In this document: positions 51,019 through 53,237 of the stretch, one piece after another
Numbering within the stretch: position 1 is the stretch's first letter
How the letters are laid out: every line of letters begins with the position of its first letter
Assembly: GCF_003014555.1 (NCBI RefSeq)
Contig: NZ_PYGE01000006.1
Location: 1 to 64,000, forward strand
Reading direction: 5' to 3'
DNA from: Haloactinopolyspora alba
GTDB lineage: Bacteria > Actinomycetota > Actinomycetes > Jiangellales > Jiangellaceae
DNA: 64,000 nucleotides
Notes under the pieces: model-generated
Databases searched by the model: none
Seen by the model: the letters and a program-made list of their open reading frames with translations, nothing else
Told to the model about the DNA's origin: nothing
Translations under genes and position numbers: made by a program

Positions 51019-51048
51019 GCCGTGACCGGCCCTCGACCGGCTCACGGC
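51019..51048 (-). terminator. hairpin overlapping the whiA stop codon
   Basis: gccgtga (51019-51025) pairs with tcacggc (51042-51048), extended by ccgg/ccgg inside with one bulged base. The 3' arm holds the whiA stop. It separates the uvrC-whiA transcript from gap and probably terminates the former. Confidence 0.45.
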
Positions 51049-52022
51049 GCGAGCATGTCCGGCGTGAGATTGGCGTCGGTGCCCGGCAGGCCCTCGTCGG
51101 ACGCCTTGCGGTCGGCCATCGCGAGCAGCCGGCGGATCCGGCCCGCGACCGCGTCCTTCGTCATCGGCGGGTCCGACAGTTGCCCGAGCTCCTCGAGACT
51201 CGCCTGTTTGTTCTGCAGCCGCAGCTCGCCGGCGACGCGCAGGTGGTCGGGCACCTCGTCACCGAGGATCTGCAGTGCCCGCTCGACGCGCGCGCCGGCG
51301 GCCACCGCCGCCCGTGCGGAGCGCCGCAGGTTGGCGTCGTCGAAGTTGGCCAGCCGGTTCGCGGTGGCCCGGACCTCGCGGCGCATCCGGCGCTCCTCCC
51401 ACGCCAGCACGCTGTCGTGGGCGCCGAGACGGGTCAACAGCGCGCCGATGGCATCGCCGTCGCGCACCACCACCCGGTCGATGCCGCGCACGTCACGCGC
51501 CTTGGCCTGAATCTCGAGCCTGCGGGCCGCGCCCACGAGCGCCAGAGCTGCCTCCGGTCCCGGGCACGTCACCTCCAGCGCCGACGAGCGGCCCGGCTCG
51601 GTCAGCGACCCGTGGGCGAGGAACGCGCCGCGCCACGCCGCCTCCGCGTCGTGCTCGGCGCCGTTCACGACCTGTGGCGGCAGCCCGCGGACCGGCCGCC
51701 CGCCGCCGTCGACGAGACCCGTCTGGCGGGCCAGCCGCTCGCCGTCACGCACCACCCGCACGACGTACCGGCTGCCCTTGCGCAGCCCGCCCGCCGAGAC
51801 CATGGCCAGGTCGCTGTCGTGGCCGAACACCTCAGCTATGTCGCGCCGCAGCCTCCGGGCCGCGACCCCCGTATCCAGCTCGGCCTCGATGACGATCTTT
51901 CCACTGACGATGTGCAGGCCGCCGCCGAACCTGAGCAGCGACGACACTTCCGCTTTGCGGCAGCATGTCTTGGTGACCTCGAGGCGAGCCAGCTCGTCCT
52001 TCACGGATGCGGTCATCGCCAT
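51042..52022 (-). CDS. whiA: sporulation/cell-division regulator WhiA
   Basis: This 326-residue WhiA has an N-terminal LAGLIDADG-homing-endonuclease-like part ([38 protein letters not shown]) and a C-terminal helix-turn-helix ([28 protein letters not shown]). In actinomycetes it co-regulates septation genes. Start 52022 ([11 protein letters not shown]) matches the family, and the longer frame is rejected. A 186-base gap with an inverted repeat separates it from yvcK, to which it is often directly adjacent. Confidence 0.95.
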
Positions 52023-52066: not shown

Positions 52067-52199
52067 GCCGTTCCCGCCCGCGGCCAACGCCAGGTAGCGA
52101 GGTTGCGCCGCGTGTGGGGCCGTTCAGGGTTCGGACGGGCATCGGCGAGCGAGGGACGAGTGAGCCGCGGGCGGGAACGGCCCCACACGGGGCGCAACC
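52067..52199. repeat. composite inverted repeat between yvcK and whiA
   Basis: Two left elements, 52067-52084 (gccgttcccgcccgcggc) and 52101-52125 (starting ggttgcgccg), both have reverse complements on the right, at 52164-52181 and 52175-52199. The first pair is perfect over 18 bases and the second matches at 24 of 25. The right copies overlap by seven bases. Pairing either left element with the right arm gives alternative hairpins, so the structure could switch. Confidence 0.75.
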
Positions 52200-52208
52200 G
52201 CACAACTC

Positions 52209-53237
52209 TCAGCGCCAGGGGGCGATGGCGTCACGGCCGAGGATGCGGGCGAACACCCGGCCGAGCCGCTCCGGGTCGTGCCGTCCGGTGCCGTCGTGCG
52301 CGCCCACGTCGGCCACCACCAGCTCGCCGCCCATCTCGCCGGCGATGCGGCGCAGCAGCTTCTCGTCCGGGGACGACGCCCGCTCGGCGATCACGAGGTC
52401 GACCGGCAGCTCGGGCGCGTAGGCGCCCAGCACCTCGAGGTGCATCTCGGGGGTGAAGCCGGTGGTCTCGCCACCCTCCTCGGAGAGGTTCAGCGTCACC
52501 GCCACCCTCGCCCGCGTCTCGACGAGCGCGGCGCGCAGCTCCGGCACCATCAGGTGCGGGATGACGCTGGTGAACCACGAGCCCGGTCCCAGCACCACCC
52601 AGTCGGCGTCGGCGATGGCTTCGAGCGCCTCCGGACACGCCGGCGGGCTCTCGGGAACCAGCCGCACCGCGACGACGTCGCCCTGCACCGTCGCCACGGC
52701 GTGCTGGCCGGAGACGGTGCTGAGGACGCGGTGGCCGTCGGCGCCGCGGTCGGCGCTGCCCACGATCGCCTCGATGTCCATCGGGACCAACGACATGGGC
52801 AGCACCCGGCCCTGCGCGCCCAGCAGGCGCGCGACCCAGTCGAGACCCTCGACATGCCCGTCCAGCAGCTCCCACAACGCGACGATGAGCAGGTTGCCGG
52901 CGGCATGGTTGTGCAGCTCGCCACCGCTGGCGAACCGGTGCTGGAGCACGCGCGCCCAGGTACGGCCCCAGTCGTCGTCGCCGCACAGGGCCGCCAGCGC
53001 CATCCGCAGATCGCCGGGCGGCAGCACGCCCAGCTCGCCACGGAGCCGGCCGCTGGAGCCGCCGTCGTCGGCGACCGTCACCACCGCCGTCAGCCGGCCG
53101 GCCATGCGGCGCAGCGCCGACAACGAGGCCGCCAGACCGTGTCCGCCGCCGAGCGCGACGACCTTCGGACCGGCCAGCCCGGACGGGTGCGGCCGTCCCG
53201 CGACGGTGACCGCCGGCGCCGGCGGCAGCTCACTCAT
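52209..53237 (-). CDS. yvcK: YvcK/CofD-like protein (gluconeogenesis factor)
   Basis: This 342-residue CofD-fold protein of the YvcK type has VVALGGGHGLAASLSALRR, TVADDGGSSGRLR and LGPGSWFTSVIPHL, motifs that bind UDP-sugars in the family. YvcK is needed for normal cell shape and growth on gluconeogenic carbon. It lies between rapZ (25-base gap) and whiA in the conserved rapZ-yvcK-whiA order. Confidence 0.93.
   Translation of the reverse strand: MSELPPAPAVTVAGRPHPSGLAGPKVVALGGGHGLAASLSALRRMAGRLTAVVTVADDGGSSGRLRGELGVLPPGDLRMALAALCGDDDWGRTWARVLQHRFASGGELHNHAAGNLLIVALWELLDGHVEGLDWVARLLGAQGRVLPMSLVPMDIEAIVGSADRGADGHRVLSTVSGQHAVATVQGDVVAVRLVPESPPACPEALEAIADADWVVLGPGSWFTSVIPHLMVPELRAALVETRARVAVTLNLSEEGGETTGFTPEMHLEVLGAYAPELPVDLVIAERASSPDEKLLRRIAGEMGGELVVADVGAHDGTGRHDPERLGRVFARILGRDAIAPWR

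What the first reader, a model, noticed from the sequence alone, without database searches (positions are those of the whole stretch)
52067..52199. Composite inverted repeat that can form two competing hairpins upstream of whiA
The right arm (52164-52199) can pair with either of two left elements, 18/18 or 24/25 bases. It lies in the yvcK-whiA interval, often without a gap, directly upstream of the developmental regulator whiA. It could be a mobile palindrome or a regulatory switch.
Basis: partly seen in the sequence, partly recalled or inferred. Interest (0 to 1): 0.5.

Follow-up and report, generated by a model that had tools for sequence, protein, structure and literature searches.

The report
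Dispersed hairpin element beside whiA gene
The odd palindrome between yvcK and whiA is one of about thirty scattered copies of a hairpin DNA element that keeps its folded design while its stem letters differ at every site, so it is a repeat family rather than a private switch for whiA.

Summary
The inverted repeat is real (18/18 and 24/25 complementary), but it is not a whiA switch. The window's element (52101-52199) is one of 32 model matches in this genome. The family is found in 18 of 22 genomes of the same bacterial family; in a 148-genome class sample the only match outside that family is one weak hit. Members include Phytoactinopolyspora species.

A typical copy is a 93-nt hairpin. An outer stem of about 23 bp has different letters at each site yet stays paired. 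Inside lie a short mid helix, a conserved 9-nt bulge, and an apical helix that I read as tandem sheared G.A pairs closed by a GNA triloop.

Most copies sit near gene ends, rarely between divergent genes; here 9 nt after yvcK. Some lie in frame inside ORFs. At one orthologous ORF site the core points the other way in two species, as template switching between inverted-repeat arms would produce. No REP transposase (Y1_Tnp) was found in the 22 genomes.

The second left element (52067-52084) looks like an inverted scrap of the conserved core. The whiA-locus copy is missing from the 19 relatives whose junction was complete. The function, probably a 3'-end hairpin, is inferred.

The parts
52101..52125 (+). 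left arm of the outer stem (copy-specific letters), 24/25 paired with 52175-52199
   Evidence: all 22 stem columns in 24 selected copies show compensatory changes
52129..52133 (+). mid helix, 5' side (pairs with 52168-52172, one mismatch)
   Evidence: RNAalifold on 24 copies, (columns 26, 27, 29, 30 with 69, 68, 66, 65); supported by one-sided changes only
52134..52142 (+). conserved 9-nt one-sided bulge, consensus GWCGGGCAT
   Evidence: columns 31-39 of A1 strongly conserved except column 32
52144..52166 (+). apical helix: Watson-Crick pairs alternating with two tandem G.A steps (inferred sheared), closed by a GNA triloop
   Evidence: all 8 G.A letters invariant in the 24 copies of A1 and in 50 of 57 long apices; symmetric short forms and swapped Watson-Crick contexts
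52154..52156 (+). inferred GNA triloop (GGA in this copy)
   Evidence: 54 of 57 long apices have GNA: GAA 32, GCA 10, GTA 8, GGA 4; three do not
52175..52199 (+). right arm of the outer stem
52104..52196 (+). whole element as matched by covariance model R1 (89.9 bits, E 3.7e-18)
52067..52084 (-). inverted partial copy of the 3' shoulder of the core; 18/18 complementary to 52164-52181; not part of the family structure
   Evidence: other copies carry core scraps in other places (L009, L010, L110)
52209..53237 (-). yvcK-like gene; its stop codon is 9 nt from the outer stem
   Evidence: gene name from the finding and recall
51042..52022 (-). whiA-like gene (ATG at 52022)
   Evidence: gene name from the finding and recall

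Best explanation
The feature is one copy of a dispersed, structure-conserved palindromic element of the Jiangellaceae (93 nt in its main form; 85-112 nt in the variants fetched). SHOWN: many copies; copy-specific but paired arms; a conserved core; a preference for the 3' ends of genes; occasional in-frame residence in ORFs; a core pointing the other way in two species at one orthologous site. INFERRED: (1) the apex is a helix of tandem sheared G.A pairs with a GNA triloop formed by the G/A-rich strand; (2) the arms are rewritten in step by template switching between the two arms during replication, which also turns the core round; (3) selection, or conversion between copies, keeps the core; (4) in place, the hairpin acts as a two-way 3'-end structure (transcription end, mRNA 3' protection or insulation), here behind yvcK, where it may uncouple whiA from yvcK. 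In six relatives the two genes abut or overlap. How copies spread is unknown.
For: Copies: 32 matches in this genome and matches in 18 of 22 family genomes, 80 in one of them. Arms: 63 of 78 collected copies have an ungapped stem scoring at least 10, mean 23 nt, 95.5% Watson-Crick; arms swapped between copies score median 4 (4 of 187 reach 10). In 24 selected copies the covariation score is 0.727 against 0.177 shuffled, and 22 of 22 outer pairs have double changes. Apex: all eight G.A letters kept in 50 of 57 long apices and a GNA loop in 54 of 57 while neighbouring pairs change in step (C-G to T-A, G-C to C-G, G-C to A-T); eight short forms lose CGAG on both sides; G.A steps persist inside quite different Watson-Crick contexts in G010, G012, G013, G017, G018 and G020 (my reading). 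Strand: G-T mismatches exceed A-C on the G/A strand, 27 to 11. Position: of 62 copies between two called genes, 24 convergent, 37 co-directional, 1 divergent; window background 9, 42, 9 of 60. Turned core: the hydantoinase ORF site is occupied in 5 species, with opposite orientation in G010 and G014. PMC8604942 (abstract and passages) describes arm homogenisation plus spacer inversion by template switching; PMC8794818 (significance statement and passages) describes template switching creating and keeping hairpins.
Against: No expression, termination or structure data. Empty sites in relatives are too diverged to show an insertion event or a target-site duplication. The strand bias is modest (p 0.014 by cells, 0.035 by copies). 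The gene nearest to the element usually transcribes the C-rich strand, not the G/A strand that I think folds, which sits badly with a simple RNA-level role of the G/A strand. Standard energy models do not favour the apex in DNA (z = 0.66) and favour it only weakly in RNA (z = -1.5). Seven of 57 long apices break a G.A letter and 3 of 57 lack a GNA loop; the G010/G012 form has a loop that is mostly not GNA, and five long forms from G006 (110-112 nt) do not fit the plain scheme. Arms at 12 orthologous pairs are hardly more alike (0.45-0.73) than at unrelated sites (mean 0.495), so independent insertion at a hotspot is possible in some cases. The turned copy in G014 is also heavily altered.
Confidence: 0.6

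Rival explanations
1. Regulatory switch: the whiA leader chooses between the 18/18 and the 24/25 hairpin.
For: Both pairings exist and share bases.
Against: The element is one of 32 genome matches; the second partner is not part of the family; the copy is missing at the 19 complete junctions of relatives; the fold without the 24/25 stem is 15.5 kcal/mol worse on the whiA-sense strand.
Confidence: 0.05
2. Classical REP or MITE: a non-autonomous transposon moved by a transposase that recognises the hairpin; arms diverged after insertion.
For: Many copies, 0-80 model matches between related genomes, tandem pairs.
Against: No Y1_Tnp (PF01797) in any of 22 genomes; no target-site duplication recognised; arms far less alike than the core (0.495 against 0.896), whereas a transposed unit should carry its ends unchanged. 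Other transposase families were not searched.
Confidence: 0.3
3. Dispersed structured RNA: the G/A strand is transcribed as a functional RNA or 3'UTR module that binds a protein.
For: Covariation, conserved bulge and non-canonical pairs, G-T bias on the G/A strand.
Against: In co-directional settings the G/A strand is antisense in 24 of 37 (p 0.10); no Rfam match in the window.
Confidence: 0.25
4. Insertion of a small core into the loops of pre-existing terminator hairpins, so that the stems are native terminators.
For: Stems are site-specific and sit at gene ends.
Against: At four element sites compared in relatives (18 fetched loci; 17 read, one gap of 2 kb not shown), I saw by eye no hairpin with matching arms; some sites have no clear hairpin, some an unrelated one. 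The model finds no full copy there, only one weak partial hit (L128, 17.6 bits, E 0.03). Some in-ORF copies carry full stems too. Left arms share residual similarity (0.495 against 0.328 shuffled).
Confidence: 0.1

Closest known systems
REP / BIME repeats (GTAG REPs with RAYT; CGTC REPs without a dedicated transposase)
   Same: dispersed, mostly extragenic hairpins, tandem pairs, some intragenic copies, G-T pairing in stems (passages of PMC3733652 and PMC12306157)
   Different: 93 nt rather than 14-40 nt; stem letters not shared between copies; conserved elaborate loop; no Y1 transposase in the family
Rickettsia palindromic elements (RPE)
   Same: palindromic, dispersed, some copies in frame inside protein-coding genes (recalled; search listings only)
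   Different: unrelated bacteria; most copies outside genes; arms copy-specific; in 3 of 4 in-ORF copies checked against Pfam the element lies between domains or at the C-terminal end, in 1 of 4 inside a domain match
Template-switch hairpins / quasipalindromes
   Same: arms kept alike and spacer turned round (PMC8604942, PMC8794818, passages)
   Different: there a mutation process at single loci; here a dispersed family with a conserved core
Intrinsic terminators / 3'UTR hairpins
   Same: position just behind stop codons, G+C-rich stem, often between convergent genes
   Different: about 49-nt conserved loop; no T run in the window copy; termination untested
Intrastrand triplex motifs (PMC4666352, abstract and passages)
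   Same: abundant non-B DNA repeats in bacteria
   Different: triplex formation was not tested here; the proposed unusual feature is G.A pairing

Membership tests
REP sequences | short (14-40 nt in E. coli) hairpin with a common consensus in its members (passage of PMC12306157) | tested here: not met
   93 nt; arm identity between copies 0.495, core 0.896
REP sequences (GTAG type) | RAYT / Y1 transposase in the genome | tested here: not met
   PF01797 absent in 22 of 22 genomes; rings in 5 of 14 control genomes
REP sequences | multi-copy and mainly extragenic | tested here: met
   62 of 78 collected copies between called genes, 13 inside ORFs, 3 undecided; 32 model matches in the genome
RPE-like intragenic palindromes | in-frame insertion in ORFs without breaking them | tested here: met
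   13 copies lie inside open ORFs of my ORF scorer; 5 of these are one orthologous site and 3 another
RPE-like intragenic palindromes | sequence homology to Rickettsia elements | not tested
   no Rickettsia element was compared
MITE | terminal inverted repeats shared with an autonomous transposon and target-site duplication | tested here: inconclusive
   arms not shared between copies; empty sites too diverged; transposases other than Y1 not searched
Intrinsic terminator | hairpin that stops transcription | not testable with these tools
   no RNA data
Known structured RNA (Rfam 15) | match at the gathering score | tested here: not met
   0 matches in the window

The most novel reading that the evidence does not exclude
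A class of repeat that inherits architecture instead of sequence: a conserved, non-canonically paired cap (tandem sheared G.A steps with a GNA triloop and a 9-nt bulge) is kept by selection or conversion, while template switching continually rewrites the stem letters and turns the cap round at each site. The cap would be recognised by an unknown host factor or mobilising enzyme, which spreads the element to 3' ends of genes without a REP transposase. The same G.A/GNA cap occurs on an unrelated stem in another actinobacterial family (4 copies in G325), which would make it a recurring module.
Probability: 0.25. Interest if true: 0.75.

Novelty: new variant of a known kind. Interest (0 to 1): 0.5.

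Why it matters
Dispersed bacterial palindromes are usually defined by shared sequence. This family is held together by shared structure, with stems that differ at every locus yet stay paired, so sequence-based repeat finders would tend to split it. It gives 32 natural copies in this genome, some at sites shared with other species, on which arm rewriting and spacer inversion by template switching can be followed, and a concrete, cheap structural prediction (a G.A/GNA capped hairpin) to test. For the window itself it removes a false lead: there is no sign of a private two-state leader for whiA.

Tried and rejected
A whiA-specific switch: rejected because the element is a dispersed repeat and is missing at this junction in relatives. 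Two weak model hits do lie inside the G009 junction (24.2 and 20.2 bits); their alignments show other palindromes without the core. A RAYT-mobilised REP: Y1_Tnp searched and absent. Core inserted into the loops of native terminators: no hairpin with matching arms seen by eye at compared empty sites. A coding role of the core in intergenic copies: one frame has a stop in some copies (TGA in L028), so dropped. In ORFs, 7 of 8 opposite-orientation copies use the frame that gives SLVPRSPMP or a variant of it (exact LVPRSPMP in 3, only RSPMP in L113), but these come from few independent sites. A G-quadruplex in the G-rich shoulder was considered and not tested. Generality of the G.A/GNA cap: the pattern GCGAGC-GNA-GCGAGC occurs in 47 of 98 class genomes, in most of them at counts like the reversed control, with excess in a few (G072 20 of 39 GCGAGC-NNN-GCGAGC sites, G087 25 of 56, G102 18 of 42; G064 34 of 90, but there the reversed control also gives 19); so the cap is not general. 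Plasmid collection: no match to the locus. Literature: the listings of searches show no paper on this family; the apex strings hit nothing, and a related generic string hit one unrelated paper. One search used too loose a pattern and its output was not used.

Rows dropped before counts: alignment A1 holds 24 of the 39 copies with a 23-nt apex. They were chosen for gap-free pairing (at least 15 of 22 arm positions); three more with 15 (L023, L024, L090) and 12 with fewer were left out, so the percentages are inflated by choice. Ten short-apex copies and 29 copies whose apex or flank lengths did not fit were not aligned. One search gives the less selected figures (63 of 78 passed; 15 failed). 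The apex count covers 57 of 78 copies; 21 (short, altered or truncated) were not counted. The 78 copies are profile hits of 15 bits or more on loci fetched for earlier DNA hits, and a few weak ones may be false. Gene calls come from a home-made ORF scorer, not from annotation, and the position counts pool copies that are not independent (tandem and orthologous ones). At the yvcK-whiA junction G003 had no whiA side on its fetched stretch and G004 gave no usable match.

Full report
Observation. The window holds the inverted repeat as described: 52067-52084 with 52164-52181, 18/18, and 52101-52125 with 52175-52199, 24/25. It lies in the 186-nt gap between the yvcK stop (gene 52209-53237, minus strand) and the whiA ATG at 52022 (minus strand), 9 nt behind the yvcK stop and 78 nt before whiA. 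Gene names are those of the finding and of recall; no call named them.

It is a dispersed repeat. A DNA search of the own genome with 161 bases around the element gave 30 matches, of which 3 are the element itself and its two arms and 27 lie elsewhere. Most cover window 52112-52180, that is, the loop and the inner stem. A covariance model built later found 32 matches in this genome and matches in 18 of 22 genomes of the family: 80 in G006, 34 in G010, 22 in G012, 21 in G018, 6 in the congeneric G001, none in G004, G005, G015 and G019. In a sample of 148 class genomes, scored with stricter filters, it matched 11: ten of the same family, and one (G117, E 1.1e-5) that may be chance. Named carriers of the exact core string are Phytoactinopolyspora alkaliphila, halotolerans and limicola and a MAG, DX1.bin79. 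That these belong to the Jiangellaceae is recalled. No Rfam family matched the window.

Anatomy. About 49 nt of core are alike between copies; the arms are not. Of 78 copies collected with a core profile, 63 have an ungapped stem scoring at least 10, mean length 23 nt, 95.5% Watson-Crick; when right arms are exchanged between copies the median score falls to 4 and 4 of 187 reach 10. In 24 copies chosen for gap-free alignment (see Tried and rejected for what was dropped), 95.8% of cells pair, against 67.2% after shuffling and 36-43% after sliding; each of the 22 outer pairs shows changes on both sides; the covariation score is 0.727 against 0.177. RNAalifold adds a mid helix (columns 26-30 with 65-69), supported by one-sided changes only, and leaves a conserved 9-nt bulge, GWCGGGCAT.

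The apex. The 23-nt apex GGC-GA-GC-GA-G-GNA-C-GA-GC-GA-GCC reads as Watson-Crick pairs alternating with tandem G.A steps and closed by a GNA triloop. That CGAG/CGAG steps form sheared G.A pairs and that GNA triloops are stable is recalled knowledge. Support: the eight G.A letters are invariant in the 24 aligned copies and kept in 50 of the 57 long apices that could be counted; 54 of 57 have a GNA loop (GAA 32, GCA 10, GTA 8, GGA 4) and 3 do not. Neighbouring pairs change in step (C-G to T-A, G-C to C-G, G-C to A-T). Eight short apices lose one CGAG on each side (GGYGAG-GNA-CGAGCC). By my reading the G.A steps survive in other Watson-Crick settings, such as CCGAGCGAG-GAA-CGAGCGAGG (G017, G018), GGGGG-TGAG-GAA-CGAG-CCCCC (G020, and with GGA in G013) and a form with two G.A steps under GGCG...CGCC in G010 and G012, whose loop is mostly not GNA. 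Five long forms from G006 in the same call do not fit the plain scheme. Only the G/A strand can form G.A steps; the other strand would have C/U mismatches. In the stems G-T mismatches outnumber A-C 27 to 11 on that strand (p 0.014; by copies 17 to 6, p 0.035). Against it: folding programs give the apex no special stability in DNA and only a weak one in RNA.

Position. By my own ORF scorer, of 78 copies 62 lie between two called genes: 24 convergent, 37 co-directional (24 with the G/A strand antisense, 13 sense, p 0.10), 1 divergent; 3 were undecided. The window's own gene pairs are 9 convergent, 42 co-directional and 9 divergent of 60 (Fisher p 0.004 for convergent and 0.008 for divergent); the copies are not all independent. 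Where the right-hand gene points at the element its stop is a median of 32.5 nt from the core profile's edge (48 copies, 37 of them within 60 nt). 13 copies lie inside ORFs. Of four such ORFs checked against Pfam, two carry the element between the membrane and ATPase domains of an ABC transporter protein, one at the C-terminal end of an ABC ATPase, and one inside the match to the C-terminal domain of hydantoinase A.

Orthologous sites. Several copies are shared between species. The hydantoinase site is filled in G000, G001 and G008 with one orientation and in G010 and G014 with the other; the G014 copy is heavily altered. Behind a gene ending KKKAGK (a histone-like HU protein by recall), G000 and G006 have copies of different subtypes and opposite orientation. 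At 12 orthologous pairs left arms are 0.45-0.73 identical, and cores of equal length (11 pairs) 0.76-0.96; at unrelated sites arms average 0.495 and cores 0.896; shuffled arms give 0.328. So arms keep a faint common origin but have been rewritten in step. PMC8604942 describes arm homogenisation together with spacer inversion through polymerase template switching, and PMC8794818 describes template switching creating and maintaining RNA hairpins (abstract or significance text and passages). That one process would explain both oddities here, but I have no direct view of an event.

The window copy. Of 21 yvcK loci searched with the model (the window's own and 20 relatives), only the window's own had a strong hit (89.9 bits). 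The weaker ones are 24.2 and 20.2 bits inside the G009 junction, where the alignment shows other palindromes without the core, and 22.2 bits in G020 outside the gap. 19 of the 20 relatives have the complete junction; G003 does not. In six relatives (G002, G006, G008, G010, G012, G014) the two genes abut or overlap; by the letters, in G010 and G002 the yvcK stop overlaps the whiA start region. In several genomes of the Jiangella-like genus the gap carries other palindromes. Hence the element is not an old, conserved whiA control. It may well uncouple whiA from yvcK in this species; that is inference. The second left arm, 52067-52084, matches the inverted 3' shoulder of the conserved core. Core scraps occur at other copies too (L009, L010, L110). 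I read it as a partial inverted duplicate.

Spread. REP-type Y1 transposases are missing in 22 of 22 genomes. Other enzymes were not searched. Model matches vary from 0 to 80 per genome, so copies are probably gained or lost readily.

Same cap elsewhere. In 393 class genomes the apex pattern with one mismatch occurs in 7: six of this family and G325 of another, which has 4 copies on an unrelated stem (CCCCTTGAGG...CCTCGAAAGGGG or variants); the reversed pattern occurs in none. A simpler cap pattern is enriched in a minority of genomes only.

Verdict. A real, well-structured repeat family that I found in none of the literature listings (searches; an open-access library only), a new variant of the dispersed-palindrome kind. 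The identification as a family is near certain; the G.A/GNA cap is likely (about 0.75); arm rewriting by template switching is plausible (about 0.5); a 3'-end function is a reasonable guess (about 0.4).

Noticed in passing
L041, L044, L047, L052 (yvcK-whiA gaps of G015, G007, G016, G021): A different palindrome, AGTTGATCTTGGAGT...ACTCCAAGATCAACT or close to it, occupies the same intergenic gap in the Jiangella-like genus; this gap seems to attract palindromes.
   Followed up: no
   Followed up: no
L127, L128, L130, L124 (sites orthologous to element sites): Long palindromes with GATCATG or GATGATC at gene ends in G014, G001, G020 and G010; the one in G014 has arms of roughly 40 nt.
   Followed up: no
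L145-L148 (G325): Unrelated actinobacterial repeat with the same G.A/GNA cap on a largely conserved stem, between genes.
   Followed up: partly
L016 1227-3023: Branched-chain amino acid permease and ATPase domains fused in one ORF with an element as the in-frame linker; the element may have joined two genes.
   Followed up: no
L110 about 2026-2125 (G000 C6, near 73.2 kb): Second composite copy: an inverted scrap of the core follows the right arm, as the scrap precedes the left arm in the window copy.
   Followed up: partly
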